The position numbers and the translations under genes were made by a program. Below are positions 40,704-60,110 of a stretch of 64,000 nucleotides of DNA, piece by piece. Within the stretch, counting starts at the first letter, position 1, and every line of letters starts with the position of its first letter. The notes under the pieces were generated by a model, which saw only the letters and a program-made list of their open reading frames with translations, did not search any database and was not told where the DNA came from. Source of the stretch: Calothrix sp. PCC 7716 (lineage in GTDB: Bacteria; Cyanobacteriota; Cyanobacteriia; Cyanobacteriales; Nostocaceae); contig NZ_AP025018.1 in NCBI RefSeq assembly GCF_019977735.1, positions 8,250,580 to 8,314,579 of the forward strand. Reading direction: 5' to 3'.

Positions 40704-40775
40704 GGGTGACTAGCTCAATGGTAGAGCATAGGACTCTTAATCCTCAGGTTTTGGGTTCGAGTCCCAAGTCACCCA
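40704..40775 (+). tRNA. tRNA-Lys (CTT)
   Basis: 72-nt cloverleaf: acceptor GGGTGAC/GTCACCC, D stem GCTC/GAGC, anticodon loop CTCTTAA (anticodon CTT), T stem TTGGG/CCCAA with loop TTCGAGT, discriminator A. One mismatch at the top of the anticodon stem. It is the integration target of the element to the right; its 3' part is rebuilt by the att core, so the tRNA stays intact. Confidence 0.93.
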
Positions 40776-40777
40776 CT
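40734..40777. other. attL, 44-bp core in tRNA-Lys
   Basis: From the anticodon loop to two bases past the tRNA end; identical to 60067-60110 except A at 40746 versus T at 60079 (tRNA variable-loop position 44). This is the classic target of tyrosine integrases. Confidence 0.9.
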
Positions 40778-40801
40778 GATTTTACGCTTGTATCCGTATA
40801 A

Positions 40802-40834
40802 ATCTGACGAAAATCTGACGAGAACTTGACGAAA
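40802..40834. repeat. Three tandem 11-bp repeats beside attL
   Basis: ATCTGACGAAA, ATCTGACGAGA and ACTTGACGAAA lie head to tail 25 bp inside the element. Spacing of one helical turn and proximity to the core suggest arm-type integrase or excisionase sites. Confidence 0.6.
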
Positions 40835-40971
40835 CCACCCCTTGATAACCACGGTTTTAATGTGTTTCAGGTGACATACAGACGATTTTTTGGTAGCTTC
40901 AGTATTTTTACTAAAGTTAGTATCTTTTTTTGCGCGTAAAAAGGAATAGTACAAGAAAATTGTTAAAAACT

Positions 40972-41304
40972 ATGGCTGAACCAACGCTTGCCCAAGTATT
41001 CGGCACCAATGCCTCGCAAACTGCAACGGAACTAATAATTTCTAAAGTTGATTTAGCTACAGTTGGCTTAACTGCTAGTGCTGACAATACAGGAGAGTCT
41101 TTAATAACAGCTATATTGCTTTTATCAGAAATCGAACTAAATGAGACAAAGCAAGAGACTAACCCCGATATTCAAATAACGATTGTTAAATCCAATCAAC
41201 CATCAATTGTTAGCAGGAATAATCAGAACTATAGACAACTAACAATCAGCGTAGACTTGCAAACACCTGATACTGGTTCAGGCATCGACCCCGATAATTA
41301 CTAA
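40972..41304 (+). CDS. Element protein, possible virion component
   Basis: 110 residues from MAEPTLAQVFGTNASQTATE; a TTG start 42 bp upstream is less likely. It is beta-rich after residue 20, acidic, and has no membrane segment. It shares the theme 'FGTNASQTATELIISKVDL' with the protein two genes on (FGINAKQSTSNIIIRKADL), so the two are paralogs. First gene of a rightward block whose members overlap or nearly touch. I do not know the family; structural role inferred from position. Confidence 0.6.
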   Translation: MAEPTLAQVFGTNASQTATELIISKVDLATVGLTASADNTGESLITAILLLSEIELNETKQETNPDIQITIVKSNQPSIVSRNNQNYRQLTISVDLQTPDTGSGIDPDNY

Positions 41305-41305
41305 C

Positions 41306-42079
41306 ATGGCAGTAGCTACTAGGATTGATTCAGCATTAGCAGCTACTATCACCCAAACTAGCCTAGTGAATGCCCTTATTACTGCTTTCACTAATGCGGG
41401 TTATAGTGCTGCTTTCGATAATTACACTTCTGGAACCGACAGAGTATTAATTTATAGATTCGATGCGGATGCAAGTAAGACTTTTGGCAGTAACTTTTTA
41501 AGGATAAGAGTTACTACTGCTTTAGTAATTAACGTGACCATTGGGACAGCTTTTAACACAAGTACTAAAGCTTTGAGTAATGGAAGTACAGAAATAGTAT
41601 TTACGGCTTTAAGCACTACAGTAAATATTAATTTTACAGCTTTAAACGCTGGTAGCGAAGCAAGGTTAGTGTTACTTACTCAGGGTGCTACTTTTATCCC
41701 ATTGGGCATGATTATTCCCGCTAATCGCCCTAGTTGGTGGAATTTGGATAGTTGGAATTATGGATTTATATTTATAGCTTCTGCTATGAGCGTAATCAGA
41801 AGCAGTTCTATCAGTCCTTATTCAAACTCGGATTATGAAATTTTTTCTTCTACTAGATTGAGTGCAATAAATACTCAAACTAATAGGAGGGATGTTTTAA
41901 CGGGATTAATATTACTTACTCAGAGCAACGCTGGTGTTGCTGGCAAAACCTCTGATGATTTGGGTATCGCCGCTGCTACGGGTTCCGCACGATTTGACAC
42001 CTTAAGCTTTCCTGATAATACACAGCAATTTTTATTAGTAAATACTGGTACAAGTGGCTTCGCGGTGAGGGTTAATTGA
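41306..42079 (+). CDS. Element protein, possible virion surface or capsid component
   Basis: 257 residues. The N-terminal helix (TQTSLVNALITAFTNAGY) is followed by SGTDRVLIYRFDADASKTFGS and a long run of alternating beta strands rich in Thr, Ser and Asn, with RPSWWNLDSWNYGFIF in the middle. That composition is typical of viral structural proteins, and the size would suit a jelly-roll capsid protein. It is separated from the previous gene by one base and overlaps the next. Not recognised by family. Confidence 0.6.
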   Translation: MAVATRIDSALAATITQTSLVNALITAFTNAGYSAAFDNYTSGTDRVLIYRFDADASKTFGSNFLRIRVTTALVINVTIGTAFNTSTKALSNGSTEIVFTALSTTVNINFTALNAGSEARLVLLTQGATFIPLGMIIPANRPSWWNLDSWNYGFIFIASAMSVIRSSSISPYSNSDYEIFSSTRLSAINTQTNRRDVLTGLILLTQSNAGVAGKTSDDLGIAAATGSARFDTLSFPDNTQQFLLVNTGTSGFAVRVN

Positions 42080-42528
42080 TGTACTCAAGCAGCAAGATTA
42101 ATCAAGTAACTACTAGGAGCTTAATCGCTCCGAGTATTTCTTCAAAGGTAGTTAGTGGTGTACTAACTAGAGTAATAGCTACATTTACAAATTTACCTAA
42201 GTATATAAATTACTTAACCGAATTTCAGGCAATATTCGGTATTAATGCCAAGCAATCAACAAGTAATATCATTATCCGCAAAGCCGACTTATTAATTAAC
42301 GCATCTTCTAATAACTCAGCACAAGGCTTATTAGTTTGCTTATTAGTAAATAGCATCAAAGTTAATTTAGTAAACAACACTAAATTTAATTCTAGACTCT
42401 GGAATACAAGCATTTCAGGAGGAATTATTTTAAATCAAGTAATCATTGATTTATTTAATCCACTTGTAACGCTTGATGGGGAAGAATACGAACAAGTAAA
42501 CACTGTGTTAAATCTGATGGATTATTGA
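42079..42528 (+). CDS. Element protein, paralog of the first block gene
   Basis: 149 residues from the ATG at 42079, inside the previous TGA. The core FQAIFGINAKQSTSNIIIRKADLLI followed by QGLLVCLLVNSIKVNLV parallels the 110-residue protein (VFGTNASQTATELIISKVDLAT, SLITAILLLSEIELN). Both end with a strand pair ending EEYEQVNTVLNL or NYRQLTISVDL. Probably paired structural subunits. Confidence 0.6.
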   Translation: MYSSSKINQVTTRSLIAPSISSKVVSGVLTRVIATFTNLPKYINYLTEFQAIFGINAKQSTSNIIIRKADLLINASSNNSAQGLLVCLLVNSIKVNLVNNTKFNSRLWNTSISGGIILNQVIIDLFNPLVTLDGEEYEQVNTVLNLMDY

Positions 42529-42530
42529 TT

Positions 42531-43151
42531 ATGGGTATACATTGCAAAATTGGTGAATCTGCCAAAGTTTTCTATACTTTTGGTGATGACCCCAAAAAAG
42601 AATTTATTTATCATGCGGGTACTGCACCAATCGAAGTAGTAACAGGTAAAGAAGATAACCCAAATATAACGGGTGAGATGTACGCTTGGAACTTTTCTAC
42701 ATCCGCTAATCCTAGAACTACTTTAGAACAGATGCCCTTTGCTGCAAAAGGTAAATTAACTGGCTTTAGGGTTGAGAGATTAATTAATACGGCTACCATA
42801 GCAGAAGTTGAGTATGGAAATTGGGAATGTAGTTTTTTAGATGGGGATGGAAATAGACAATTCGGTTCTGCTGTTGGTTATTACCCCAACGATACGCCAA
42901 AGCTAGTCAAATTACTAAGAAGAGAAGAACCCCTAGACTCTGACTTTTGTAAGTTAGAGGTCAAGACATTTACAGGGGAAACAATGTTTAAAGTTACTGG
43001 TAAATGTCCAGTAGTTTACCGTGTAGCTTGCCTCAACTGCCCAGAAGGTGAGATTGAATGCACCAAATCTTCTTATCCTGGTTATTGCTGTATACCATGT
43101 CAAGATACAGCTAGTCGTATTAGAAACTTAGGAGCTAAAGTAAATGGCTGA
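42531..43151 (+). CDS. Element protein with Cys-rich C-terminus
   Basis: 206 residues from MGIHCKIGESAKVFYTFG. The N-terminal two thirds are beta-rich (WNFSTSANPRTTLEQ, KGKLTGFRVERLI). The last 45 residues hold nine cysteines: CPVVYRVACLNCPEGEIEC and SSYPGYCCIPCQD, as in disulphide- or metal-stabilised receptor-binding or spike domains. Its stop overlaps the next start by 8 bp. Role unknown; an extracellular or surface domain is likely. Confidence 0.6.
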   Translation: MGIHCKIGESAKVFYTFGDDPKKEFIYHAGTAPIEVVTGKEDNPNITGEMYAWNFSTSANPRTTLEQMPFAAKGKLTGFRVERLINTATIAEVEYGNWECSFLDGDGNRQFGSAVGYYPNDTPKLVKLLRREEPLDSDFCKLEVKTFTGETMFKVTGKCPVVYRVACLNCPEGEIECTKSSYPGYCCIPCQDTASRIRNLGAKVNG

Positions 43152-43440: not shown

Positions 43441-43481
43441 ATAGTTAAACAAAATTTTAAACATTTATTTATAGGTAATAT

Positions 43482-45887
43482 ATGGGATTGGGTAGAGTAT
43501 CAATACCTAGCAATTCGTCATTTGAACAAACGGCTAGAGTGTTAAATGACTTAGTTCGTAAAATGCCTAAAGCTACCGAAGCTGTTAAGGATGCCGCTAA
43601 ACTGCGTGATGGTTTAACCGATGTTACTAAGCGGGTGAAACAAGCAAAAGAAGCGGCTGATAAAGGTTCTCAATTAGCTAAGAATGCACAACAGGAAATT
43701 AACAAATTAAAAAATTTGGGCAAAGACGTTAAAAAAGCTAAAGACGCTATTGATAACTTAAAAGCTGGTAAGTGGGCTAAAATCGGTGGTAGATTTGCTA
43801 GCTTTATGAACTTACTTACGTCAGCTTTGTCAATTTTTGGCGTAGTTTTAGGTTTTGGTAATTTATGGCTAACTAGTCAAGTTAACGAGTCTCAAATTAG
43901 GCAATTTGAACTAACGGGTAGAGAGTTTGCTATTCAATTTAAATTAATTCAAAAATCTTATTCTAGATTAAAAAATTTAGAAGATGGTTTCAAAAAGCTA
44001 AAGGGTGATTTAGACGCTACTAAAAAAACTTTGTATGGTGATGTTCAAAACTTACTTACAAACTTGCCTAAAGTCCGTAAGACAGCGAATGACGCACTTT
44101 ATGAGGTGCGAGCAGGTAGAAAAATACTTGAAGCTAAAATTGTTGATGCTGCCAAAAAAGGAAATGATGCTTTATACGAGGTGCGAGCAGGTAGAGCCAA
44201 GCTTGAGGCTCAACTAGCTACAATCAAAAAACAAGCTAACGACGCACTATTTGAAACGAGGCAAGGTAGGGTAAAGATTGATGCTAATTTACAAGCACAG
44301 TCAACTAGGTTAAATACTTTAGCTACAAGGGTCGGTTCTGTAGAGAGTGAGCTTAAACTTATTAAACCAACTACACCTAATGCCCCTAATCAAAACAATA
44401 GTGATGTAGTTCGTAAAATGGACTTTCCTAACTTAATTAGGCAAAATGCACAAACTATTAACGCCGTTATTGAGCCTTACACCGTAAAAACAGTAGATGG
44501 TAAATTAGAATCTTTTAGAAAGGGTTTTGATAGTAAACTAAACCAAAAACTTGATAGAGATAAACTTATTACCGAAATACAACAAAAATCTGGCGATATT
44601 CTTAGGATTATTACACCCGCAATTAATTCTACAATTGCTCCTGTCGCTGCATCTGTTAAAGGTCTAGAATTAGCAGTGCCTAACCTAGCTCAAGGCGTTG
44701 GCAATTTGGCTCAAAATGTGGGGGGTTTAAAAGCTGATGTAAATAACCTTACTCGTAGAGTTGAAAGGCAAGAAATAGAGAACAGCAAACAAGCTCTTGA
44801 TATTGAAACATTAAAAACAAGAACAAGGGAGCAAGAGAAGGTGAACGCTGAGGGTAATAAAAAGCTTGATGACTTACTTAAATGGACTTTAGGTATATCA
44901 CCAGCACTAGCGCTTATACCGCGCAAAACAGCTGATTTAATTAATCCAAATATCCCTAATATCAATCAAATTGGTCAAGCAGTACGGAATAATACACCAT
45001 CAACTTGTCGTTTTTCTGAGGCGCCAATCTATGCCGCAGCAGGTCAAGTAAACGCTCATAGCACTGCTTTGGATGTTGTCCAAACAGGGTTAATTACAGC
45101 CAATACCGGAATCGTTACCAATATAAACAATACTGCTAACACGATAAATACAAAATTAGGCGCACAGTTAACGGGTGGTATTGGCGGATTCCTTACTAAC
45201 TTCTTAGCAAGGTTTAATAAAGTTGCAGAATGGCTGCATCTTGACCGTGCGCTTAATATTCTCATTTGGTGGCAAACTTTACACAATGGCGCCATGCTAA
45301 GTAATAACATTTTTCAAACAATGGTATCCGGACTTAATAACGTACTTGCGTTTATTGGGATAAAAGATGCTGAAGGAAATAATTTAGACATTGGCTCGGT
45401 TGTTGGTAAAGCTTACGTAGATATGTTAAAAACCGCACTAGGCGAACAAACGTACAACAATCTAAATTCTACATGGAATAAAGCAAATAGAACATATCAA
45501 GCTGTTAGTAATGCTTTAAGTAATATTACAAGCATGTTTAATTCTGTTTTTGGTATTTTTAATATTATTGGGAACCGGATATCAAAAATTGCAAACGCTC
45601 TTAGATGGTTTGGGACAGTTGCTGATAATGCCTACACTTACATGAGTGAAACTAACAACTTTGGTAATCCAATTATTGATAACTTAACTAAAGCTAGTGA
45701 AGCTGTAGGCTCCTTTGAAACAGTGACTTCTGAAGTTTTAAACGTTAAAGTTCAGGGGGAAGAATTACTAAAAAATACCGATGAGATTAAAAAGAACATT
45801 AATATTTTTGAAAATTCTCAAGAAGCTAAAGACGTGCTAGAAAAAAGTAAAAATAAAGAACCGGAAGTAGGTGATGATGATGTCTAA
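43482..45887 (+). CDS. Long coiled-coil protein with membrane segments (virion fibre or tape-like)
   Basis: 801 residues, the largest structural candidate. Coiled coil at about 10-95, a hydrophobic segment at about 106-130 (SFMNLLTSALSIFGVVLGFG), then a long coiled coil to about 460 with three repeats NDALYEVRAGRKILEA, NDALYEVRAGRAKLEA, NDALFETRQGRVKIDA. The C-terminal third has hydrophobic helices (ALNILIWWQTLHNGAMLS, GIFNIIGNRI) and a charged tail. It could span the virion membrane, be a tape-measure analogue or an ejection protein. It lacks Cys except one. Confidence 0.6.
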   Translation: MGLGRVSIPSNSSFEQTARVLNDLVRKMPKATEAVKDAAKLRDGLTDVTKRVKQAKEAADKGSQLAKNAQQEINKLKNLGKDVKKAKDAIDNLKAGKWAKIGGRFASFMNLLTSALSIFGVVLGFGNLWLTSQVNESQIRQFELTGREFAIQFKLIQKSYSRLKNLEDGFKKLKGDLDATKKTLYGDVQNLLTNLPKVRKTANDALYEVRAGRKILEAKIVDAAKKGNDALYEVRAGRAKLEAQLATIKKQANDALFETRQGRVKIDANLQAQSTRLNTLATRVGSVESELKLIKPTTPNAPNQNNSDVVRKMDFPNLIRQNAQTINAVIEPYTVKTVDGKLESFRKGFDSKLNQKLDRDKLITEIQQKSGDILRIITPAINSTIAPVAASVKGLELAVPNLAQGVGNLAQNVGGLKADVNNLTRRVERQEIENSKQALDIETLKTRTREQEKVNAEGNKKLDDLLKWTLGISPALALIPRKTADLINPNIPNINQIGQAVRNNTPSTCRFSEAPIYAAAGQVNAHSTALDVVQTGLITANTGIVTNINNTANTINTKLGAQLTGGIGGFLTNFLARFNKVAEWLHLDRALNILIWWQTLHNGAMLSNNIFQTMVSGLNNVLAFIGIKDAEGNNLDIGSVVGKAYVDMLKTALGEQTYNNLNSTWNKANRTYQAVSNALSNITSMFNSVFGIFNIIGNRISKIANALRWFGTVADNAYTYMSETNNFGNPIIDNLTKASEAVGSFETVTSEVLNVKVQGEELLKNTDEIKKNINIFENSQEAKDVLEKSKNKEPEVGDDDV

Positions 45888-46518
45888 ATACAATTTCGAT
45901 AAATTTAAAAAGAAATTTCGTAAAGTTCATAACTTACAGGTGCAACGAGCTATTAAAATAGCTAAGGATGAAAAAGTAAAAAATACCAAGCTAAGTTTAT
46001 TAACTGATTGCCTAATCGATGCAAATGATACGGCTCAAATGTTGCTTCTCAAATCTCATTTCTTTTGGACTAACTTAGGAAACTTAAATAATAAAATTGA
46101 TGCCGTTGCTAGTATTCCAGTCTCTTGGGTAATTACACCGGGAAGTAGTATCCCTCAGCTTGCAATAGTCTTTAGAGCAAAGGAGGCGAAACGTAGCGGA
46201 AACTATACCATCTATATTCCGCATTACAACGGGAACCGCAATCCTGTTATAAAGCCTTATACGAAAGGAGAGTATGGCTATGTATTTGAATGTAAAGACA
46301 ATTCAAAAATGATTATTTATGCCAATTCTCACAAGTCAGCAGAGGCATACATAAAAAATAACCTCTTGGAATACGTGGATAAGCGCTTTTTACCAGGAAT
46401 AGGTAAACCTATTAAAAGAGCAGGTATCAAAAAAAATACAATGCAACCGTACAGGGCTGACTTTTACCCCAATGGAGCAAGTGAGGGAGAGCGCCCAATC
46501 TGGCGTCATTATTTCTAA
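45880..46518 (+). CDS. Basic element protein
   Basis: 212 residues. Four in-frame start codons (GTG then three ATG, 45871-45882) precede SKYNFDKFKKKFRKVHN; the last gives the best spacing to GGAAGTAGG. A very basic N-terminal helix is followed by a mixed domain with NYTIYIPHYNGNRNPVIKPY and ENSKMIIYANSHKSAEAYI-like patterns. It ends RPIWRHYF. It overlaps the previous gene by 8 bp. Unknown; the basic helix suggests nucleic acid or membrane contact. Confidence 0.55.
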   Translation: MSKYNFDKFKKKFRKVHNLQVQRAIKIAKDEKVKNTKLSLLTDCLIDANDTAQMLLLKSHFFWTNLGNLNNKIDAVASIPVSWVITPGSSIPQLAIVFRAKEAKRSGNYTIYIPHYNGNRNPVIKPYTKGEYGYVFECKDNSKMIIYANSHKSAEAYIKNNLLEYVDKRFLPGIGKPIKRAGIKKNTMQPYRADFYPNGASEGERPIWRHYF

Positions 46519-46524
46519 AAAGAT

Positions 46525-46659: not shown

Positions 46660-46902
46660 ATGCCAGCACCAATTACAGGAAACGATATTAAGTCCACTCA
46701 CAAATCAGCAGCGCTATTAGAAGTCGCCATGAGTCTTCAAGCTTCTGAATTTGCTGTACCGGAAGAAACCCGCCCAAACAACATAACTGTAACTTTTGAT
46801 GCTGAAGCTAGAACAGCATCAGTTACAGCTACATTGCCAGTTACTTTTACTGCTGATGTTGATGGTAAACCCGTTATTGCCGCTACTGATTACATCCCAT
46901 AA
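46660..46902 (+). CDS. Small element protein
   Basis: 80 residues, acidic, no Cys, no Trp. Two parts: a helix (TGNDIKSTHKSAALLEVAMS) and a beta hairpin region (ITVTFDAEARTASVTATLPV, TFTADVDGKPV). AAAGG lies 7 bp before the ATG, after a 140-bp leader with the palindrome, so this gene has its own strong expression signals. Such an isolated small gene with a good ribosome site could be an abundant virion protein. Unknown family. Confidence 0.55.
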   Translation: MPAPITGNDIKSTHKSAALLEVAMSLQASEFAVPEETRPNNITVTFDAEARTASVTATLPVTFTADVDGKPVIAATDYIP

Positions 46903-46916
46903 TTTTTTAAAACAAT

Positions 46917-47366
46917 ATGGCAACTAAAGGCCCAACTAAAGGCGGTCGGATTCTGGTTAAGCTTCCCTTTGGTGAAACTCAAAAGGAAAGCTCAAAAGAA
47001 AACGCCAAAAGTCAATACGTAGCAATCAAAGAAAACGTAGCGAAAGCTCTAGGTTTTAAACCAGTTGATAAAATGCCTACGGTACAAGTCAAAGCAAAAA
47101 TTGGTAAAGGTAATGCTGAGGTTACAATTACCCGTCTTGTTAGAGGCGCCTATAAACGACGTTCCGTAAAATTGCTTTTTAAATCTCAAAAAAGTATTGG
47201 TGGTAAGTCTGTCAAGACTGTAAGTCTTCCCTTACCGAGTGGTGTAACAATGGCAGATGTTGCTAAATACTTTAATGAAGGGGCAGGAAAAGCGGCAGGA
47301 GTATCAGGAATGGTGACGCCAGATGGTATTAAGGTTCAGTGGGACACCATTAGTATCAAGAAATAA
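46917..47366 (+). CDS. Basic element protein, possible capsid component
   Basis: 149 residues, Lys-rich, with alternating strands (GGRILVKLPFGE, AEVTITRLVRGAYKRRSVKL, KSVKTVSLPLPSGVTMADV). No Cys, Trp or membrane segment. It follows the 80-residue gene by 14 bp and shares its stop with the next start (TAATGG). Size and composition suit a DNA-facing capsid or nucleoid-type protein, but this is inference only. Confidence 0.55.
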   Translation: MATKGPTKGGRILVKLPFGETQKESSKENAKSQYVAIKENVAKALGFKPVDKMPTVQVKAKIGKGNAEVTITRLVRGAYKRRSVKLLFKSQKSIGGKSVKTVSLPLPSGVTMADVAKYFNEGAGKAAGVSGMVTPDGIKVQWDTISIKK

Positions 47367-47845
47367 TGGCTCGCTTAAAGCTTAGTCCTAAAAACTGGCG
47401 ATTGATAAAAAACGTTAATCGTTTAGCTCGTCAGTTTCCAAGCGGCGCTCAATGGGTACCAATTCCACCAGATATATTTAAGATATCAGTACCACTTTGC
47501 ATAGTACTGATATCAGCACCTGAAGCTAAATATAATTGGTGGTTTGCTGGATGGGTTAAGGCTTACTTATACAGTGGCGCGTTTGTAAGCCGCCAACTGA
47601 TAGGGATTAAAGATTGGCGATTGGGGATTGACCGTGCTGAGATTATTGATTTTAGGTTTTATGAAGCTAATCAATATGCTTTAGAAATTTCTTTCCCCAA
47701 ATGGCATCGAAAAATTAAATATCAGGTGTGGGAGTACACGGGAACTCTTACTGATGCCACAGATACTGATATACAGCGTGTGCTTGCTCAATTAGCAAGT
47801 ATTGAAAAAAAGGTCAACGATATTTCTGAGTTTGGGCGTTCATGA
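47366..47845 (+). CDS. Element protein, Trp-rich
   Basis: 159 residues. A basic start (KLSPKNWRLIKNVNRLARQF) is followed by VPLCIVLISAPEAKYNWWFAG, a run with many aromatics (nine Trp overall), and a C-terminal coiled end (DIQRVLAQLASIEKKVNDIS). Overlaps both neighbours by 1-4 bp. Family not recognised; a baseplate-, vertex- or membrane-associated role is possible. Confidence 0.55.
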   Translation: MARLKLSPKNWRLIKNVNRLARQFPSGAQWVPIPPDIFKISVPLCIVLISAPEAKYNWWFAGWVKAYLYSGAFVSRQLIGIKDWRLGIDRAEIIDFRFYEANQYALEISFPKWHRKIKYQVWEYTGTLTDATDTDIQRVLAQLASIEKKVNDISEFGRS

Positions 47846-48552
47846 GTTGGCGTTCTTTGGGTCGATACATTCTTAATAAAAACTGGCAGTACACCAATCC
47901 GGTACAAGGTGAGATATTTAGGATTAAAAGCGGATTAATAACTAGCGCTTCTAATCAATATTTAAAAGGGGCAATATCTTCTATTGTTATTGATGAAAAT
48001 AAAAAAATTAATTTATTTGATTCAAAACGACTTAGTTACCGAATAGAACCTGAAATTTTTACTTTTTATTTTCCCATTGGTTTAGGAGACCAGCGAGTAG
48101 GAATTAAACGACTTGATGACACTAATTTAATATGGACTATCGAACTAGAAGTACTTAATGTTGATGCTCAAGACTATGATTTTGACAGACTTTTAACACA
48201 ATTTGGAGATAGGATTTTATCTTTTATGTCAGTATATAATCGTGGTGTTTCTTTTACTCCTCATACTCCGGCTAGCGCTAGATTTGAGTTGGTGGCAAGA
48301 GAAAAGAAAAAAATTCTTGATGCAAATAGCAAGAGACGTAACTTAACCTTAAGTAATGGAAGTTCCTTAGTTTTAGTCTGTGACGGGTTTTTAGAAAACG
48401 GTTCACCTAAAACAGTGCTTTATACTTTGCAGCCAAATGAAGAGTATAACTTTCCTGTTAATAACGGACTTTATCAAGGAGAAATTCACTTTATGAATCT
48501 GACTGATTCAAAAGCGAATATTTCTTACATTGAATACAATGCGGCTGTTTAA
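47842..48552 (+). CDS. Element protein, beta-rich
   Basis: 236 residues. Begins SWRSLGRYILNKNWQY; the body is alternating strands with phrases such as PEIFTFYFPIGLGDQRVGI and LIWTIELEVLNVDAQDYDFD. The C-terminal third (LSNGSSLVLVCDGFLENG, TVLYTLQPNEEYNFPV, LYQGEIHFMN) looks like a carbohydrate-binding-like beta sandwich. ATGA overlap with the previous gene. Likely a virion surface or adsorption protein by inference. Confidence 0.55.
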   Translation: MSWRSLGRYILNKNWQYTNPVQGEIFRIKSGLITSASNQYLKGAISSIVIDENKKINLFDSKRLSYRIEPEIFTFYFPIGLGDQRVGIKRLDDTNLIWTIELEVLNVDAQDYDFDRLLTQFGDRILSFMSVYNRGVSFTPHTPASARFELVAREKKKILDANSKRRNLTLSNGSSLVLVCDGFLENGSPKTVLYTLQPNEEYNFPVNNGLYQGEIHFMNLTDSKANISYIEYNAAV

Positions 48553-48612: not shown

Positions 48613-48930
48613 ATGAAGCTGCTTGAAATCATGCAGCTAGCAACTGCAACTATTACTTTAGTTGCAGTTATTTGGCACATTGCAGAAATGAAAAGCCAAA
48701 TTATTAAATACACAGATACTGTAGTTGCTAGCTTGCATAATCGTATTTACGACAATGATAAAAAGTTTGAAGTTTTTGTAACTCGGTTTGAAGAACGCAA
48801 AGAGTTTGTAAATTATCAATTACATGGTTTAGATGAGAAGCTAAATCATAAATTTCAAAGGTTGATGGATGAGATACAGACCTTAAAACTTGAAATAAAA
48901 GATTTAAAAAGAAATGAAGATAGCAATTGA
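48613..48930 (+). CDS. Membrane-anchored coiled-coil protein before the amidase
   Basis: 105 residues. One membrane helix (about 8-26, LATATITLVAVIWHIAEM) then a continuous charged coiled coil to the end (QLHGLDEKLNHKFQRLMDEI, QTLKLEIKDLKRNEDS). Topology resembles small lysis-accessory or spanin-like proteins. It overlaps the amidase gene by 17 bp, placing it in the lysis cassette. Confidence 0.65.
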   Translation: MKLLEIMQLATATITLVAVIWHIAEMKSQIIKYTDTVVASLHNRIYDNDKKFEVFVTRFEERKEFVNYQLHGLDEKLNHKFQRLMDEIQTLKLEIKDLKRNEDSN

Positions 48931-49441
48931 TATTGGACATAACGTTGCACCTGATGGCGGTGCCGTTGGTTTTGGAAACGAAAATTGGATGAATACCTCA
49001 ATCGGTACTCATTTAATATCAATGCTTAAAAAGGCAGGTGTAGAAGTAATCGCTTGTAAACCAATAACCGCTTCTTCTGTGCGCGATAGTTTGCGTAAGA
49101 GAGTAAGCAAGGCTAATGCTGAAAAGTGTGATTACTATATTTCAATACATCACAATGCGGGTAAAGGAAAAGGCTGTGAGGTTTTTTATACGTCACCTGA
49201 TGGTTTAAAATTAGCGACTCCGATTACTAACTGTATTTCTTCACTAGGTTTTAATAACCGTGGAGCTAAATGTAGTGATGAATATTTTGTTCTCAATCAC
49301 ACTAAGATGCCTGCTGTAATCGTAGAAACATGCTTTGTTGATACTCAATCTGATGTTGAATTGTGGAATAAGTTAGGAGCCGAGAAAATAGCGCGTGCAA
49401 TTTATGACGGATTGAATACCGCCCTTAAGTTTGCAAAATGA
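48914..49441 (+). CDS. N-acetylmuramoyl-L-alanine amidase (endolysin)
   Basis: 175 residues, a single Amidase_3 domain without signal peptide or binding repeats. Zinc ligands: His in IAIDIGHNVAPDGGAVG (about 8), Glu near 24, His in YYISIHHNAGKGKG (about 79), and catalytic Glu in PAVIVETCFVD (about 140). It cuts the amide bond between N-acetylmuramic acid and the stem peptide. Lack of a signal fits an endolysin released by a holin, and a holin-like gene follows with ATGA overlap. Confidence 0.9.
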   Translation: MKIAIDIGHNVAPDGGAVGFGNENWMNTSIGTHLISMLKKAGVEVIACKPITASSVRDSLRKRVSKANAEKCDYYISIHHNAGKGKGCEVFYTSPDGLKLATPITNCISSLGFNNRGAKCSDEYFVLNHTKMPAVIVETCFVDTQSDVELWNKLGAEKIARAIYDGLNTALKFAK

Positions 49442-49602
49442 AAAATCTATCTCTTCCCTCTCTCCTGGTTTTAATTGTTGTTACTGGTGTGGCTGCTGTG
49501 GCAATTCTAGATGGTGTTTACCGTAAAGATTTTATGCAGTTGGCTACTGCTGTTGTTACAGGCTATTTCGCTCATCTACAAGCGCCGCGACGTGAACAAT
49601 GA
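49438..49602 (+). CDS. Holin-like two-helix membrane protein
   Basis: 54 residues: a short polar start, helix 1 LPSLLVLIVVTGVAAVAI (about 6-24), a turn with DGVYRKDF, helix 2 MQLATAVVTGYFAHL (about 33-47), then a basic tail QAPRREQ. The two-helix hairpin with a basic end is a class II-like holin pattern. ATG overlaps the amidase stop and its own TGA overlaps the next ATG, so translation is coupled on both sides. Confidence 0.72.
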   Translation: MKNLSLPSLLVLIVVTGVAAVAILDGVYRKDFMQLATAVVTGYFAHLQAPRREQ

Positions 49603-53570: not shown

Positions 53571-53774
53571 TTAAATCGCCAATAACTTCCCCAGAATTTT
53601 CTCTTCCTGGGTTGCCAATGGTATCTTGCCCCTCCCTATCCTCTCTACAAACTCCGAACGACTGTACCCCATTGACTCCGCTAACGTATCCAGACCCTGA
53701 ATGCCTGTCAGGGTAAGGCTCATAGCGACTGTCTTTTTGATTTCCCCGTATTCCAGGTGTTTTGTTTTCTTCAT
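53571..53774 (-). CDS. Ribbon-helix-helix regulator, possibly frameshifted
   Basis: 67 residues: a basic start, then VAMSLTLTGIQGLDTLAESM and GYSRSEFVERIGRGKIPL, the MetJ/Arc-type fold common in cyanobacterial plasmid and phage repressors. It ends LGKLLAI. In another frame the DNA directly continues as a good coiled coil (GEVIGDLIEEVQEQLSESEN to 53452). A shift of -1 at GGGGAAG would give a ~105-residue RHH-coiled-coil protein. Four operator-like boxes lie just upstream, so it is likely the element's repressor, autoregulated. Confidence 0.7.
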   Translation of the reverse strand: MKKTKHLEYGEIKKTVAMSLTLTGIQGLDTLAESMGYSRSEFVERIGRGKIPLATQEEKILGKLLAI

Positions 53775-54462: not shown

Positions 54463-54463
54463 A

Positions 54464-54496: not shown

Positions 54497-54537
54497 CTGC
54501 CTACCATCCAAAAATAATAGACACAAGGATTTTACCA

Positions 54538-54825
54538 ATGACTAAACCAGTTGGCTACTACACTAACTACACTCCAGGAGATGAAGGGCTTCTGGCTGAA
54601 ATGCAAGAAACTTTCGGTTCACAGTTTGAAGCGCTTAATAATTCTCAACGCTTCTGGATGATAATGTCCCTTGCTGAAATTTTCTCAGATGAGAATGATG
54701 TCAAAAACGAACACGATGAGGACGTGCAAAACTCAATTGAACGATTTGAAGAACTAACCGAGTCTGACCGTATCGGTTTGATGGAAGCGTTGGTAGCGCA
54801 AGCTCGACACTTTGGGAGGTTCTAA
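54538..54825 (+). CDS. Acidic element protein
   Basis: 95 residues, strongly acidic (SDENDVKNEHDEDVQNSIER). Phrases EALNNSQRFWMIMSLAEIFS and ELTESDRIGLMEALVAQARH are helical. No membrane segment. A small soluble partner; its stop abuts the TTG start of the next gene. Family not recognised. ACAAGGA precedes the ATG. Confidence 0.5.
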   Translation: MTKPVGYYTNYTPGDEGLLAEMQETFGSQFEALNNSQRFWMIMSLAEIFSDENDVKNEHDEDVQNSIERFEELTESDRIGLMEALVAQARHFGRF

Positions 54826-55320
54826 TTGATTAATAAAAAGACTTGGCGTAAGCACAAAACAGAAATAGTCTTTGTAGCAGCTGCCTTGATTGCCGCAATC
54901 GCTGGGCATAAAGACATTCAAAATAGTATGCAGTCTCTAAGCCAAGAGCGAGCGCGAATTGCCATTAAATCGGCTGAAGAGCGTCGCATCGAACAATCTC
55001 AAGAGCTAGCCAGAAACAAAGCAGCAATTGCACAACAGCGCTACAAAGACGGTTGTACTATTGTCGTTGCTGTAAACTCCCCTAGAAGCCTCGCCACGTT
55101 GGTAGAAGGTGAGACAGTATACGACCGTACTAGTAAAAAACCTTTACCCAGTGGAACAGTTGTATGTGATGGCAATGGGAATACTGGAATACTATCACCA
55201 GATAAAAACGGCGTTCCGGTAGTTTCTGACATGGCTTTTACTGGCAACCGAGAACTAGCAATTGAGCAAGTACGCAAAATACGTGGTGCAAAAGTTTACT
55301 ACTATACCCCGGAGAAATAA
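54826..55320 (+). CDS. Single-pass membrane protein of the ATPase module
   Basis: 164 residues, TTG start directly after the previous stop, with GGAGG 9 bp upstream. One membrane helix (about 13-27, VFVAAALIAAIAG), an Arg/Gln-rich coiled coil (about 30-70), and a C-terminal beta domain (about 75-164: CTIVVAVNSPRSLATLVEGE, GTVVCDGNGNTGILSPDK). The end RKIRGAKVYYYTPEK is followed directly by the next ATG. Possibly a periplasmic or virion-membrane component working with the ATPase. Confidence 0.55.
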   Translation: MINKKTWRKHKTEIVFVAAALIAAIAGHKDIQNSMQSLSQERARIAIKSAEERRIEQSQELARNKAAIAQQRYKDGCTIVVAVNSPRSLATLVEGETVYDRTSKKPLPSGTVVCDGNGNTGILSPDKNGVPVVSDMAFTGNRELAIEQVRKIRGAKVYYYTPEK

Positions 55321-56055
55321 ATGCCTGTATCTAAAAAAGGAACGGGAACGGCTAGCGGTGGTGCAGGGTGGACTTATTACAATGCCTCTGCCTCTAATAA
55401 CGTTCCTAAAAACTGGTTCCGTGTTCTGTGGTTTTTTCTACTACTTTCAATGGTGGTAATCGCGGTCGTTAACATCAAACCTTACGTTGATGCCGCTCAA
55501 GCTCTGGGCGTAACCATTGTTGATGCAACATTTATTAGGCTTGTATCTGTAATTCCTGTAGTTAACGCAATAGCTAGCTTATTAGGAGTTGGCGTAGCTT
55601 GGGTAGTTGGTACGGTACTTTGGGGAACATTCCAAATAATTGAACTATTACCCGTTATTATGTTCAACCACCCTGGTTTTCTAGAAGAAGTAATTAAGGA
55701 TGCCGAACAAAACAGTAAATACCAAATAAAGGAGGATGAAGACCCAACAGTAGCTAATCTGAAAAAAGCTTATAATAAGCTACCTGTAAGCTTTTTAGAG
55801 AACTTAGGTAAAATTAGACTAGTTGCTTACGTAATTGACTTTTGTATATGTTTTTGGCGTTATTCACCTGTAGCGAGTGGTAAAATAACCGATTTCTTTT
55901 ACTTCTCAGTTACTGGGCAATGGCAAAAAATCAATACAAACAACTTAATTTTAGCAATCGTTACTTTGTTTGGAGTCGAAATAGCACTTAACTTACTTCT
56001 ATGGGTAGGAAAGCTAGCATTTACCGCAAAGCGCGCTTCTGAACCAAGACGTTAA
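55321..56055 (+). CDS. Polytopic membrane protein of the ATPase module
   Basis: 244 residues with about four membrane helices: 38-55 (WFFLLLSMVVIAVVNI), 72-95, 92-115 (LLGVGVAWVVGTVLW) and 218-236 (AIVTLFGVEIALNLLLWVG). The Gly/Ser-rich N-terminus and a cytosolic central part (EDPTVANLKKAYNKLPVSFL) stand out. Starts immediately after the previous stop; a terminator follows. It could form the membrane base for the HerA/FtsK-like ATPase. No match to VirB6 or other named families that I can defend. Confidence 0.55.
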   Translation: MPVSKKGTGTASGGAGWTYYNASASNNVPKNWFRVLWFFLLLSMVVIAVVNIKPYVDAAQALGVTIVDATFIRLVSVIPVVNAIASLLGVGVAWVVGTVLWGTFQIIELLPVIMFNHPGFLEEVIKDAEQNSKYQIKEDEDPTVANLKKAYNKLPVSFLENLGKIRLVAYVIDFCICFWRYSPVASGKITDFFYFSVTGQWQKINTNNLILAIVTLFGVEIALNLLLWVGKLAFTAKRASEPRR

Positions 56056-56068
56056 AAACTTATATTAT

Positions 56069-56092
56069 CCCCTTCAGTAGCTACTGGAGGGG
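56069..56092 (+). terminator. Intrinsic terminator
   Basis: CCCCTTCAGTAG followed directly by CTACTGGAGGGG and CTTTTTAT: near-perfect stem (one G-T pair) with a T-run, 14 bp after the membrane-protein stop. The ATPase gene begins 20 bp later, so read-through must be partial. Confidence 0.75.
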
Positions 56093-56111
56093 CTTTTTAT
56101 GGAGGTTTACA

Positions 56112-57581
56112 ATGACACGTTTTAATCCTGCTAAACAACACCAATCAGCAATTAACTGGAGTGTGATAGCTTACCAAACAGCCGACAACGACAAAGCGGC
56201 CCAAACTCTAGTAATCGGATTGGTTATTGGTGTAGCCATTGCTGGCACATCTCCGCTACTTGGCGCCGCAATAGGAGCTTACTTTGTCGTAAAGGGGATA
56301 CAAAAAGCCTCTAATGCTGATAAAAATAAGAAATACATCAGAAGTTCAGGGTGTGTAGCCCATGTACTTGAAGGTGGTAATTTTCGCGCTTACCTTGACC
56401 AAAATGGTGAAGCGCAAGTACTAGCAGAACTACAGTATGCAGAACGTGAGAATCTAGCTTTTTCAGAGGAGGCGATAGACTTTTATGAGGAAAAGGGAAC
56501 ACAGACAGCGACTCTACAACAGGTGCCAACAGAAAAGACAATCTCGACCATGCCTCAAGAAATAAACATCATTGAGGAAATGACAGTAAGAATTACCAAT
56601 ACTGCCATTATCGGGATTCCTGGAAGTGGAAAGGGGATGATAATTAGTAACGCTGTACGCGAAGCTAAAAAGAAACATCCGGACTTAAAAGTATTCGTTA
56701 TAGACCCTAAAAACGACCCTAAAGAACTAGGATACTTTGGCGAATGCGACGTAGTAAAAAGGTTTGCGTGTATGGATGCTAAACCTAGTGCGGTAGCAGT
56801 TTGGGCAGAATGTTGTTTTGACGATTATGTAGTGTATGCACTTCAAAACACTAAAACGTTACTATTCATAGATGAAGGGACAATGCTAGGTAATAAATTG
56901 CATCAAGCTAAGTCAACCTTACTTATTGATAAGCTTACATCTTATACTTCTGGAGGTGATTCAACAGGCAGAAATGTTTGGTTTGCTATGCAATCTCCTT
57001 TCGTTGCAGGGGGCTTAAATCTCTCAATATTTAGTCAAATGACTAGTATCGTTATTGCATTTCAAGAAAATATTGGTGCTTTAGCTCAATGGAAGTCAGC
57101 CAAGATTTTTAAATCTTTATCCCTAGATGTAGTAGCTGATTTAATTGAAAAGTCCAGTACTGGTAGAGCGGTTTACTTTGGTAAAACAGGGCAATGGTAC
57201 GCAATGCCAAAATTAAACAATTACTCAGGTTACGACCGCGATTCACGCCAATATTTACCCGGTTTTACTCAACAATCAGAAACGACAACTAGTAATTTAG
57301 ACGCTGTAACCAAGCTTGAAAACAGCTTAAATTCTGGTTCAAATACCAGCAGTGAACTATCTAGTAACGCTCAACTTATCCTTATCTGGATTATCAACAA
57401 TCGCTCAGATAAATTGATAAAATTCAAAGGTAAAGAAGGTCGAGATATGGGTTTTATCAAGTTTCTTAGCGAGAATAAAATAGACGCTGAAACTAGAGAT
57501 AAAACAATTGAGGAGCTAGTAAACACAAAAAAAATTGATATTTCTCCAGAAGGTGATTCTATCCAATTACTTGATACTTGA
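56112..57581 (+). CDS. HerA/FtsK-superfamily membrane ATPase
   Basis: 489 residues. Two close membrane helices (about 34-62, LVIGLVIGVAIAG and AAIGAYFVVKGI), a linker, then the ATPase: Walker A IIGIPGSGKGMII (about 172-184), acidic strand VFVIDPKNDPKE, Walker B TLLFIDEGTM, and the superfamily glutamine in VWFAMQSPF. Walker A ends GKG where GKS/T is normal. The C-terminus (about 405-489) looks like a winged helix. Relatives pump DNA: packaging ATPases of membrane-containing viruses, FtsK, and conjugative coupling proteins. No relaxase is present, so viral DNA packaging or extrusion is the favoured reading. Confidence 0.78.
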   Translation: MTRFNPAKQHQSAINWSVIAYQTADNDKAAQTLVIGLVIGVAIAGTSPLLGAAIGAYFVVKGIQKASNADKNKKYIRSSGCVAHVLEGGNFRAYLDQNGEAQVLAELQYAERENLAFSEEAIDFYEEKGTQTATLQQVPTEKTISTMPQEINIIEEMTVRITNTAIIGIPGSGKGMIISNAVREAKKKHPDLKVFVIDPKNDPKELGYFGECDVVKRFACMDAKPSAVAVWAECCFDDYVVYALQNTKTLLFIDEGTMLGNKLHQAKSTLLIDKLTSYTSGGDSTGRNVWFAMQSPFVAGGLNLSIFSQMTSIVIAFQENIGALAQWKSAKIFKSLSLDVVADLIEKSSTGRAVYFGKTGQWYAMPKLNNYSGYDRDSRQYLPGFTQQSETTTSNLDAVTKLENSLNSGSNTSSELSSNAQLILIWIINNRSDKLIKFKGKEGRDMGFIKFLSENKIDAETRDKTIEELVNTKKIDISPEGDSIQLLDT

Positions 57582-57585
57582 AATA

Positions 57586-57745
57586 AAGGTGTGAGGTGTG
57601 ATAGTAGTGTAAAAACCAGGTGTGGGACAGGGTAACACCTTCACACCTCACACCTTCACACCACCTCACACCCTAGTGTTCATAAGGGTTACACCTCCCA
57701 CACTAGTGTTACCAAATATCGGTAAGTGTTACCAAGGTGTGAAAA
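57586..57745. repeat. Iteron-like TCACACC repeats and 16-bp inverted repeat
   Basis: AAGGTGTGAGGTGTGA (57586-57601) is exactly inverted at 57641-57656. TCACACC occurs in direct orientation at 57641, 57648, 57656 and 57666. CTAGTGTT occurs at 57673 and 57703, and AGTGTTACCAA at 57705-57715 and 57725-57735; a last GGTGTGA lies at 57735-57741. The 196-bp gap has no ORF. This density of repeats resembles a replication origin or packaging signal. Confidence 0.7.
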
Positions 57746-57777
57746 TAACTTTTCATTTTTGGAGGTAATAAAATAAT

Positions 57778-58026
57778 TTGGAACCTATTAAATGTCCAAT
57801 GTGTTTAAGCAGTAATTGCTTTGAACAAATTGATGGCTATTACCACTGCAATGATTGCTATAAAGTTTGGAGAAATAGTGATGAATATGAAGAGGAACCT
57901 TATTTTGAGGAAGAAGAGGTATTAGGGGACGATAATTGTCCTAGCTGTGGAGCAGATTCAATGCATATCAAATGGTACAGTTCTTTAGGCTGTTCTATTT
58001 GCGAAATTTGTGAGTACGAGATTTAA
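57778..58026 (+). CDS. Double zinc-ribbon protein
   Basis: 82 residues, TTG start with GGAGG 12 bp upstream. Two zinc ribbons: CPMC...YHCNDC (about 5-26) and CPSC...CEIC (about 57-78), joined by an acidic linker (EYEEEPYFEEEEVLGDD). It overlaps the exonuclease gene's longer frame but not its likely start. A small nucleic-acid-binding or regulatory protein. Confidence 0.6.
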   Translation: MEPIKCPMCLSSNCFEQIDGYYHCNDCYKVWRNSDEYEEEPYFEEEEVLGDDNCPSCGADSMHIKWYSSLGCSICEICEYEI

Positions 58027-58039
58027 TATAGGGAGAATT

Positions 58040-58624
58040 ATGCCTGATTTTACTGCTGATAAAGAGAACTCTATTCAATGGGCTAAATCAATTTTACATA
58101 GTGGTGAGTGGTGCATTTTAGACTCAGAAACTACAGGGTTAGGAATCAATTCTCAAATAATCCAAGTTGGGATTATTACAGATTCCGGTGAAGAGTGGCA
58201 AAGCTTCGTAAAGCCGACTATATCAATTAGTGAAGAAGCAACAGAAATACACGGAATAACTTTTGAAGATGTAGAAGAGGCGCCTTATTTTGAACAGGTA
58301 TTTATTGATTTGTGGAAAATTGTTAAAAACCGGAGTGTTATAATTTTTAACGCTGAAAACGAATTAAAATTTATTAGACAATCAATGAGGGCTAGAGGGA
58401 TACAGATAGCATTCCCAACAAGTGATAAAAGAAAATGCCGAATATTTAGCAATGGCGGCTCAATTCACTGCGCTATGCAAATGTATTCTCAGTACATGGG
58501 AGAGTGGAACGAACAATACGGTAACTACAGATGGCAGAAGTTACCAGGTGGAGACCATTCAGCTTTAGGAGATTGTAAGGCGACGTTGGAATTAATTAAA
58601 AAGATGGCAGAAGACAATATTTAA
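58040..58624 (+). CDS. DEDDh 3'-5' exonuclease (DnaQ-like)
   Basis: 194 residues from MPDFTADKENSIQWAK, chosen because GGGAGA lies 5 bp before it; the frame start at 58010 is inside the zinc-ribbon gene. Exo I CILDSETTGLG (Asp and Glu), Exo II region HGITFEDV and VIIFNAENELKFI, Exo III HSALGDCKATLEL (His and Asp, DEDDh type). It may proofread, trim ends or degrade host DNA or RNA for the element. A polymerase is not encoded here. Confidence 0.85.
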   Translation: MPDFTADKENSIQWAKSILHSGEWCILDSETTGLGINSQIIQVGIITDSGEEWQSFVKPTISISEEATEIHGITFEDVEEAPYFEQVFIDLWKIVKNRSVIIFNAENELKFIRQSMRARGIQIAFPTSDKRKCRIFSNGGSIHCAMQMYSQYMGEWNEQYGNYRWQKLPGGDHSALGDCKATLELIKKMAEDNI

Positions 58625-58830
58625 TGAATGAGCAATCAGAAATTGAGATATTAACTATTGAAAGGAGATGCCCGAATTGTAGTGAAGATGATATTCACTA
58701 TATAACTTACGAAACTGATAATTTAATATACTTTCAATGCCTAAACTGCGGTTGGGAGAAAGAATATAAATTATCAGACTTTCTTGCTAATGGTTTTTAT
58801 CCAGAAGGATATACAGGACAAAATGGATAA
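58624..58830 (+). CDS. Zinc-ribbon protein
   Basis: 68 residues. CPNC (about 15-18) and CLNC (about 39-42) form one ribbon (RRCPNCSEDDIHYITY, YFQCLNCGWEKEYK). Start overlaps the exonuclease stop (TAATG), so the two are translationally coupled. Possibly a cofactor of the exonuclease or a small regulator of the integrase, whose gene follows after 6 bp. Confidence 0.58.
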   Translation: MNEQSEIEILTIERRCPNCSEDDIHYITYETDNLIYFQCLNCGWEKEYKLSDFLANGFYPEGYTGQNG

Positions 58831-58836
58831 ATTGCA

Positions 58837-59979
58837 ATGGTTGACGTTGACAAGCTGATATTACAAGCTAACGAACGGCTTAAATATACTGGTGTATCTG
58901 TAAAGCGCGAAGGTAAACGCCTGGTACTTCGCGCCGGTTTCCCAAATAAACCAAACGGCGCCAAGTGCAACCGATTAAGCCTCGGTTGGCACGTTACACC
59001 AGAACTAATAAAACGTGCTGAATCGCTAGCTCGTAAAATTAGCGGTCAAATTGATTTAGGTGAGTTTGACTGGTGCGACTACATAAAAACACCAAACGTT
59101 AATCAACAGGCGCCACTATCAAAAAAATCATCATTGATTTTGACAGCGGGGGAGTGGGTAGCGCGTTACGAGAAAAATTATTTTGACCGACGCGCGCGTA
59201 ACCAAAAGTCAGAAGTTACTTGGCGAGTCGAATATCATACGGTGTTCAAGCAACTACCCCAAAATAAACCCTTGACAGCGGATATAATGCTTCAGCTAGC
59301 GCTAAAAATGGCACCAGATACTAGAGGTCGAAAGCGCTATTGTACGTCGTTATCCAGTTTGGCTAGGTTTGCGGGTATTGAAGTGGATTTGATGCAGTAT
59401 GCAGGCAAATACGGCATCAACAGTACTAAGCCAAAAATAATTCCTCCTGACATCGACATCGCTAAATATTTCTATACGGTTTCACACCCTGGTTGGCAAT
59501 GGATTTATGGAATGATAGCAACTTTTGGTTTACGTAATTACGAGCCATTTAGAGTAGATTTTGATTCATTTTTGAGAGACCCAGAAACGTGTGTTGTCAC
59601 AGATAGTAAAACCGGGAAACCGCGAATAGTTAAGCCGTTCTATCCGGAATGGGTAGAACATTTTAACTTGATTGACATCAAACTTCCTGAACTATCGCTC
59701 AAACGTTCTAATAGCGACCTGGGAACAGAAGCGTCAAAATTTTTTAGGAATACGGTTAAATTACCTTTTACACTGTTGCCGATTCGACATGCTTGGGCTA
59801 TCAGAACTTTGGTATTTGGGCTAGACATCTCATGGGCTGCAAAAATGATGGGTCATAGCGTGGAGATACACAGTAAGGTTTATCATCATTGGATAGATGC
59901 CAAATTTCAGATGGAGGCACACGCGCGAGTAACAGGCAATCCAGACCGCCCCCGTCCACCTTTGATGCTTGACACCTAG
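58837..59979 (+). CDS. Tyrosine site-specific integrase
   Basis: 380 residues. An N-terminal arm/core-binding region (VSVKREGKRLVLRAGFPNKP) and a C-terminal catalytic domain: first Arg in IATFGLRNYEPFRVDF, Arg in LLPIRHAWAIRTLVFG, His in KMMGHSVEIHSKVYHHW with Tyr as nucleophile. This is the phage-type integrase group common in cyanobacterial islands. It lies 88 bp from attR, at the end opposite tRNA-Lys, and should recombine the 44-bp core. Confidence 0.88.
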   Translation: MVDVDKLILQANERLKYTGVSVKREGKRLVLRAGFPNKPNGAKCNRLSLGWHVTPELIKRAESLARKISGQIDLGEFDWCDYIKTPNVNQQAPLSKKSSLILTAGEWVARYEKNYFDRRARNQKSEVTWRVEYHTVFKQLPQNKPLTADIMLQLALKMAPDTRGRKRYCTSLSSLARFAGIEVDLMQYAGKYGINSTKPKIIPPDIDIAKYFYTVSHPGWQWIYGMIATFGLRNYEPFRVDFDSFLRDPETCVVTDSKTGKPRIVKPFYPEWVEHFNLIDIKLPELSLKRSNSDLGTEASKFFRNTVKLPFTLLPIRHAWAIRTLVFGLDISWAAKMMGHSVEIHSKVYHHWIDAKFQMEAHARVTGNPDRPRPPLMLDT

Positions 59980-60007
59980 AAGCGAAGATAAATTCTCCTA
60001 TCTCTCA

Positions 60008-60034
60008 CCCGTCGGTTCTCAGTACACTGACGGG
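60008..60034 (+). terminator. Terminator after the integrase
   Basis: CCCGTC (60008-60013) and GACGGG (60029-60034) followed by TTTTAT. It isolates the integrase transcript from attR. Confidence 0.65.
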
Positions 60035-60066
60035 TTTTATGTTGTAAAAATTTTCAGTAAGTGAGT

Positions 60067-60110
60067 CTCTTAATCCTCTGGTTTTGGGTTCGAGTCCCAA
60101 GTCACCCACT
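60067..60110. other. attR, partial tRNA-Lys copy
   Basis: 44 bases matching the 3' part of tRNA-Lys with one difference (T at 60079). Lacks the acceptor 5' strand and D arm, so it is not a tRNA gene. It marks the right end of the element. Confidence 0.92.

What the first reader, a model, noticed from the sequence alone, without database searches (positions are those of the whole stretch)
40734..60110. Undescribed temperate virus-like element, possibly non-tailed
A clean 19.3-kb insertion in tRNA-Lys carries integrase, repressor, DnaB-like helicase, amidase, a holin-like gene and a HerA/FtsK ATPase with membrane partners. I find no large terminase, portal, HK97 capsid, tail tube, tape measure or relaxase. 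Known membrane-containing viruses (tectivirus-, corticovirus- and sphaerolipovirus-like) use HerA/FtsK-type packaging ATPases and encode small jelly-roll capsids and lytic enzymes; the size fits. If right, this would be a new group infecting filamentous cyanobacteria.
Basis: partly seen in the sequence, partly recalled or inferred. Interest (0 to 1): 0.88.

Follow-up and report, generated by a model that had tools for sequence, protein, structure and literature searches.

The report
Unnamed cyanobacterial virus-like integrated element family
A 19.3-kb mobile element sits in a lysine-tRNA gene of a filamentous cyanobacterium and belongs to an unnamed family of integrated elements; it likely builds an unusual virus-like particle, because it carries a conserved block of unknown genes and lysis-type genes but no recognisable tailed-phage head genes.

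Summary
A 44-nt repeat (1 mismatch) bounds 19,333 bp in tRNA-Lys(CTT), and a same-genus genome has the two flanks joined at one such site. Integrase, amidase, DnaB-N/AAA_25 protein and RNase_T exonuclease are real. No terminase, portal, HK97 capsid or relaxase matched in Pfam or PHROGs. The element belongs to a family found only in cyanobacteria in one scan of 84,980 species genomes (60 loci) and not found in IMG/VR or phage records by the queries tried. Its core is a conserved block F-G-[small coat-like genes]-J of unknown proteins.

The proposed membrane-virus reading is only partly supported. The ATPase block also occurs on plasmids that lack the late block and inside a terminase-bearing element; one relative (G120) has no canonical P-loop protein at that place. 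It is therefore poor evidence for a packaging motor. Particle architecture is unresolved: non-tailed virus, or tail-like particle without its own head.

The parts
40704..40776 (+). tRNA-Lys(ctt), integration target
   Evidence: ARAGORN
40734..40777 (+). left attachment repeat (44 nt)
   Evidence: joined site in G003
60067..60110 (+). right attachment repeat (44 nt, 1 mismatch)
40930..41304 (+). A: small late-block protein, paralogue of C (ATG start gives 110 aa)
   Evidence: A/C family in 47 of 91 fetched regions
41306..42079 (+). B: 257-aa protein, unknown
   Evidence: family in 15 of 91 regions; no significant Pfam/PHROG hit
42076..42528 (+). C: 150-aa paralogue of A
   Evidence: same HMM family as A
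42525..43151 (+). D: 208-aa protein with Cys-rich C-terminus, unknown
   Evidence: family in 40 of 91 regions; no phage hit
43144..43440 (+). E: 98-aa coiled coil
   Evidence: many weak coiled-coil family hits
43482..45887 (+). F: 801-aa coiled-coil protein with N-terminal hydrophobic segment and conserved C-terminal domain; hallmark of the family
45871..46518 (+). G: conserved alpha/beta protein, no fold match
   Evidence: family in 73 of 91 regions; 271 proteins; model of a relative
46660..46902 (+). H: small protein in the coat-like slot
   Evidence: slot comparison
46917..47366 (+). I: basic small protein in the coat-like slot
47366..47845 (+). J: conserved 159-aa protein
   Evidence: family in 56 of 91 regions; alignment
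47842..48552 (+). K: end-of-module protein
   Evidence: HMM family in 26 of 91 regions
48613..48930 (+). L: hydrophobic segment + coiled-coil protein at end of module
48914..49441 (+). amidase_3, endolysin-like
   Evidence: Pfam 7.4e-31; PHROG 4.1e-53
49438..49602 (+). holin-like 54-aa membrane protein
   Evidence: one hydrophobic segment; Pfam holin 0.017
50022..52328 (-). replication-type protein: DnaB N-domain + AAA_25
53571..53774 (-). candidate repressor (67 aa)
   Evidence: PHROG 0.047; conserved frame
54538..54825 (+). V: 95-aa partner gene
54826..55320 (+). W: 164-aa partner; hydrophobic segment passes the threshold in the G015 relative, not in the window copy
55321..56055 (+). X: 244-aa protein with 4 hydrophobic segments
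56112..57581 (+). Y: P-loop-like ATPase with N-terminal hydrophobic segment (FtsK/HerA-like by one homologue's Pfam model)
58010..58624 (+). RNase_T / DNA polymerase exonuclease-subunit-like protein
   Evidence: Pfam 9.7e-14; PHROG 1.7e-31
58837..59979 (+). integrase

Best explanation
The 19.3-kb segment is a tRNA-Lys-integrated mobile element of a family found so far only in cyanobacteria, and it likely behaves as a temperate virus whose conserved late block (A-B-C-D-E-F-G-[H,I]-J-K) would build a particle unlike the tailed-phage head. Shown: exact ends, joined site in a relative, integrase, DnaB-type protein, amidase, and a largely collinear late block in many loci. Inferred: in the lysogen a small repressor keeps the late block off; after induction the integrase excises the circle, the DnaB-type protein replicates it, the late proteins assemble, and holin-like protein plus amidase open the cell. 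Proposed but untested: F is a trimeric stalk or tape-measure-like rod, the small slot proteins (H/I and their counterparts, duplicated in some relatives) are the repeating coat or tube, and K or lectin-like end genes contact the next host. How DNA enters the particle is not known; the membrane ATPase block is a candidate DNA pump but is shared with plasmids and with a terminase-bearing element, so it may serve DNA transfer or maintenance instead.
For: Ends and joined site. Relatives with the same kind of ends: 18.3 kb in tRNA-Lys(ctt) in G015; 17.0 kb between duplicated integrases in G015b, ending in the sequence that is the tRNA-Phe 3' end in G006 (no tRNA gene in the 60 kb fetched); in G006 two 20.3-kb copies in tandem in tRNA-Phe with three 47-nt sites; in G005 a tandem repeat with period 15,393 bp (14,122 bp of match in the stretch compared). 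Late block: F in 34 of 150 relatives' genomes and at 60 loci, all cyanobacteria by record title; of 29 loci with enough flank, G in 29, directly downstream of F in 27, J in 22, an integrase in 23, a DnaB-type gene or the genes c19/c20 (role guessed) in 19. Lysis: endolysin PHROG 4.1e-53. Adhesion-like end genes in relatives: laminin-G lectin 4.9e-18 in G015, PHROG tail protein 0.0026 in G006. No terminase, portal or HK97 match; in the delimited relative G015 every protein over 200 aa belongs to F, G, X, the ATPase, DnaB-type, integrase or lectin families, so a terminase or portal could hide only among F, G or X.
Against: No particle, induction or free circular form was seen. No late protein has a recognised virion fold; PDB profile searches gave no hit below E 0.05 except coiled-coil hits for F. 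Amidase was found in only 5 of the 29 loci, so this lysis enzyme is not general. G120 has no canonical P-loop protein beside the block. Weak tail hits for F (PHROG tape measure 6.7e-10 in 1 of 25 members, tail protein in 7 of 25) and a minor-head hit for E (6.8e-5), all in coiled-coil stretches, fit a tail-like particle as well as a new virion. No CRISPR-like array was found around the four short matches checked.
Confidence: 0.5

Rival explanations
1. A head-less element: the late block makes a phage-tail-like particle, and the DNA travels, if at all, in capsids of a helper phage (a satellite that brings its own tail).
For: F resembles tail proteins weakly; the middle of F in one relative matches tail-fibre-type proteins; no terminase, portal or capsid match; a terminase-bearing element lies 1.5 Mb away in the same genome.
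Against: Terminase_6N was found in only 3 of the 34 genomes with F among 150, about what chance gives; other terminase families were looked for only in the window's own genome. No tail tube or baseplate family matched the late proteins, and the relative's slot-protein model has no tail-tube match among the rows shown. Collagen-like stretches inside F in 14 of 72 proteins (duplicates included) would be odd for a tape measure (recalled knowledge).
Confidence: 0.25
2. A membrane-containing icosahedral virus with jelly-roll capsid and FtsK/HerA packaging ATPase.
For: Size, integrase, amidase, ATPase with hydrophobic segment and a polytopic partner; no tailed-phage head genes.
Against: The ATPase block is shared with a plasmid lacking the late block and with a terminase-bearing element; the G and slot-protein models gave no jelly-roll match.
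Confidence: 0.12
3. A conjugative or mobilisable element (FtsK/TraB-like double-strand DNA transfer along or between filaments); the late block makes a surface appendage.
For: The ATPase block on a small plasmid without late genes and a c39-type ATPase on a 9.1-kb integrated element with integrase and DnaB-type gene but no late block (G003:C24).
Against: No relaxase match; the only type IV secretion hit is E at 0.031, one of 41 weak coiled-coil hits; endolysin- and holin-like genes; the late block occurs without a recognisable ATPase in G120.
Confidence: 0.1

Closest known systems
Temperate tailed phages (Caudoviricetes)
   Same: tRNA integration, integrase, replication-type protein, late block, endolysin and holin-like gene
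   Different: no terminase, portal or HK97 capsid match; late proteins unmatched in PHROGs apart from weak and coiled-coil hits
Tectivirus-, corticovirus- and sphaerolipovirus-like viruses
   Different: no jelly-roll protein found; ATPase block not tied to the late block
Inoviruses (Zot/pI morphogenesis ATPase; features recalled)
   Same: membrane-anchored P-loop ATPase
   Different: no Zot match, larger, endolysin present, different gene order
Phage satellites, including tycheposons (seen in a search listing and one review passage)
   Same: integrated elements without a full phage gene set
   Different: carries a large late block of its own; sequences of known satellites were not compared here
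Actinomycete integrative conjugative elements with TraB (recalled)
   Same: small integrated element with integrase, replication-type gene and FtsK-like ATPase
   Different: late block and endolysin have no counterpart there (recalled)

Membership tests
Caudoviricetes | large terminase | tested here: not met
   no match among 30 scanned frames in Pfam and PHROGs; PF04466, PF03354, PF03237 not in the element by six-frame search of the genome
Caudoviricetes | portal and HK97-fold capsid | tested here: not met
   no Pfam or PHROG match
Caudoviricetes | tail with tape-measure protein | tested here: inconclusive
   F: tape-measure or tail PHROGs in a minority of 25 members
Tectivirus/corticovirus/sphaerolipovirus-like | single or double jelly-roll capsid protein | tested here: inconclusive
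Tectivirus/corticovirus/sphaerolipovirus-like | FtsK/HerA packaging ATPase | tested here: inconclusive
   P-loop-like ATPase present, PF01580 on one homologue, but shared with plasmids and a terminase-bearing element
Inoviridae | Zot/pI-type ATPase | tested here: not met
   no Zot match in Pfam or PHROGs
Integrative conjugative or mobilisable element | relaxase | tested here: not met
   no match in Pfam
AICE/TraB-type element | FtsK-like dsDNA transfer protein acting alone | not testable with these tools
   function needs a mating assay
Phage satellite | dependence on a helper phage | not testable with these tools
   indirect only: Terminase_6N in 3 of 34 genomes with F

The most novel reading that the evidence does not exclude
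A new realm-level kind of virus: a temperate dsDNA virus of filamentous cyanobacteria whose virion is built from F (a trimeric stalk, collagen-bearing in some relatives), G and small slot proteins unrelated to HK97 or jelly-roll capsids, and which the IMG/VR and phage-record searches made here did not find.
Probability: 0.3. Interest if true: 0.9.

Novelty: new variant of a known kind. Interest (0 to 1): 0.66.

Why it matters
If it makes particles, a common group of integrated viruses of filamentous cyanobacteria (F in 34 of 150 relatives' genomes, against the one terminase family Terminase_6N in 12 of the same 150) is missing from the phage collections searched here, and its capsid would be new. 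If it makes tails only, it would be a satellite type that brings tails rather than capsids. Either is directly testable in culturable strains.
Full report
Observation. The segment 40734-60110 is bounded by a 44-nt direct repeat with one mismatch; the left copy is the 3' end of a tRNA-Lys(ctt) gene. In a genome of the same genus, G003 (by contig name and length Dulcicalothrix desertica PCC 7102), the left flank (1,277 nt, 94%) and the first part of the right flank (85%) lie side by side at a single copy of the site. The insertion is therefore 19,333 bp with exact ends. In G003 a second site lies about 9 kb away, followed by a short stretch like the window's left element end, so this tRNA seems to collect elements.

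Gene content. Recognisable genes are integrase, amidase, DnaB-N/AAA_25 protein, KGK-domain protein, and an RNase_T exonuclease. Thirty reading frames (29 called genes and one alternative frame) were scanned against Pfam and PHROGs; no terminase, portal, HK97, Zot or relaxase appeared. Weak head- or tail-named PHROG hits did appear: E to a minor head protein (6.8e-5) and F to a tail protein (2.1e-5), both coiled coils, a 70-aa gene to a head-morphogenesis family (0.011) and the ATPase to a tail tube family (0.061). Six-frame searches of the whole host genome with three terminase models found one terminase, 1.5 Mb away.

The family. Proteins related to F were sought with patterns from a 14-sequence alignment in one genome for each of 84,980 species: 60 loci, all cyanobacterial by record title, mostly Nostocales but also Leptolyngbya-like, Oculatella, Pleurocapsa, Symploca, Nodosilinea and a Thermosynechococcaceae bin. 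Only two short patterns were used, so distant relatives elsewhere could be missed. F was found in 34 of 150 relatives' genomes and in the protein database in 40 proteins, the window's own included, G in 271, with no functional name among the 120 rows shown. In 91 fetched regions, chosen because they hold F or the ATPase and partly overlapping, F was in 78, G in 73, J in 56, A/C in 47, the small gene c15 in 45 and D in 40. For a fairer count I used 29 of 61 loci (the window and the 60) with an F frame of at least 500 aa and at least 6 kb upstream and 5 kb downstream; 11 of the 61 had no such F frame, the window region as cut fell just short upstream, and two of the 29 are tandem copies in one contig: G in 29, directly downstream of F in 27, J in 22, integrase in 23, DnaB-type or c19/c20 gene in 19 (DnaB-type in 7; the role of c19 and c20 is guessed), amidase in 5, ATPase family c39 in 6 (two of these lack the P-loop) and the window's ATPase family in 1.

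Mobility. Delimited relatives: G015 18,338 bp between 44-nt copies of a tRNA-Lys(ctt) end, G015b 17,046 bp between duplicated integrases ending in the sequence that is the tRNA-Phe end in G006, G006 two 20,327-bp copies in tandem with three 47-nt sites in tRNA-Phe (its late genes F and G are replaced by others), G005 a tandem repeat of period 15,393 bp. Less certain: G167 18,261 bp (20-nt repeat, same gene order as the window) and G120 16,484 bp (40-nt repeat). For others searched in the same way no convincing end repeat was found. Two copies in G040 share a 7.3-kb late block at 99.3% while their replication-type genes are 71% alike, which points to exchange of the late block as a unit.

Late proteins. 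F has a hydrophobic segment between residues 50 and 151 in 22 of 30 members listed, a long coiled coil, and a conserved C-terminal third. 26 of 72 F proteins carry a motif like NDALYEVRxGR and 14 of 72 carry collagen-like stretches (duplicates included). The slot between G and J holds one or more small proteins that differ between elements and are duplicated in some, as one would expect of a coat or tube; this is inference. A relative's slot protein (mean pLDDT 79) and a relative's G (88) gave no convincing fold match. End genes in relatives include a laminin-G lectin. Together with endolysin- and holin-like genes in the window these suggest a released particle that meets a new host.

The ATPase. 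The 489-aa protein has a hydrophobic segment at 28-56, a P-loop-like GSGKG (glycine where serine or threonine is usual) and a DE pair kept in the alignment. Beside it W and X were found in 7 of 9 relatives' regions mapped, not in G009 and G032. The same block is on a 17.3-kb circular plasmid of Scytonema sp. HK-05 without any of the late families F, G or J, and in G005:C13 between genes collinear with the host's terminase-bearing element; in G049 it lies beside terminase and tail-like genes ('tail-like' is my reading of the sequences). At this place other relatives have other proteins: c39-type ATPases with canonical Walker A in G005, G035, G127, G040a, a 432-aa Walker A protein in G015b, a 411-aa protein in G167 with weak HerA-type hits (DUF87 0.029) but no canonical Walker A, and no such ATPase in G120. 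So the block looks like a membrane module of several kinds of cyanobacterial mobile element, not a mark of one virion type.

Helper question. Terminase_6N is in 12 of 150 genomes (10 over the family's cut-off); 3 of these are among the 34 with F, and 34 x 12 / 150 gives 2.7 by chance. This speaks against a resident helper of that terminase type, not against helpers from outside or with other terminases.

Verdict. A real, widespread family of virus-like integrated elements without a name in the sources searched; the particle type is open.

Noticed in passing
window 54538-57581; AP018200, G005:C13, G049: The V-W-X-ATPase block or parts of it are shared by integrated elements, plasmids and terminase-bearing elements of filamentous cyanobacteria; its function is unknown and could be DNA transfer or maintenance in multicellular filaments.
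   Followed up: partly
L135 3702-12829 (G003:C24): A 9.1-kb element at the same tRNA-Lys with integrase, c39-type ATPase and DnaB-type gene but no late block.
   Followed up: partly
L060 and L061 (G040): Late blocks 99.3% identical over 7.3 kb beside replication-type genes only 71% alike: the late block seems to move as a unit.
   Followed up: partly
window 60111-60220: The right flank follows the tRNA directly in G003, within the stretch before a second site, so the window's right side may be older accreted DNA.
   Followed up: no
G000:C1 about 9.83-9.87 Mb (L180, L181): A separate terminase-bearing, tailed-phage-like element in the same genome.
   Followed up: partly
L056 (HT-58-2 plasmid CP019638, 15.6 kb): A plasmid with ParA/ParB-like genes (names recalled), F, G and a truncated A, plus a 1,664-aa protein with a GTHF motif that recalls MACPF (recalled, not tested).
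   Followed up: no
window 59493-59535: A 43-nt stretch of the integrase gene matches at 84-93% in many family genomes: read as a conserved integrase motif.
   Followed up: partly
P0002, 19,504-base contig: One of the closest full-length homologues of the ATPase (90%) is on a contig almost exactly the element's size; it may be the free element.
   Followed up: no
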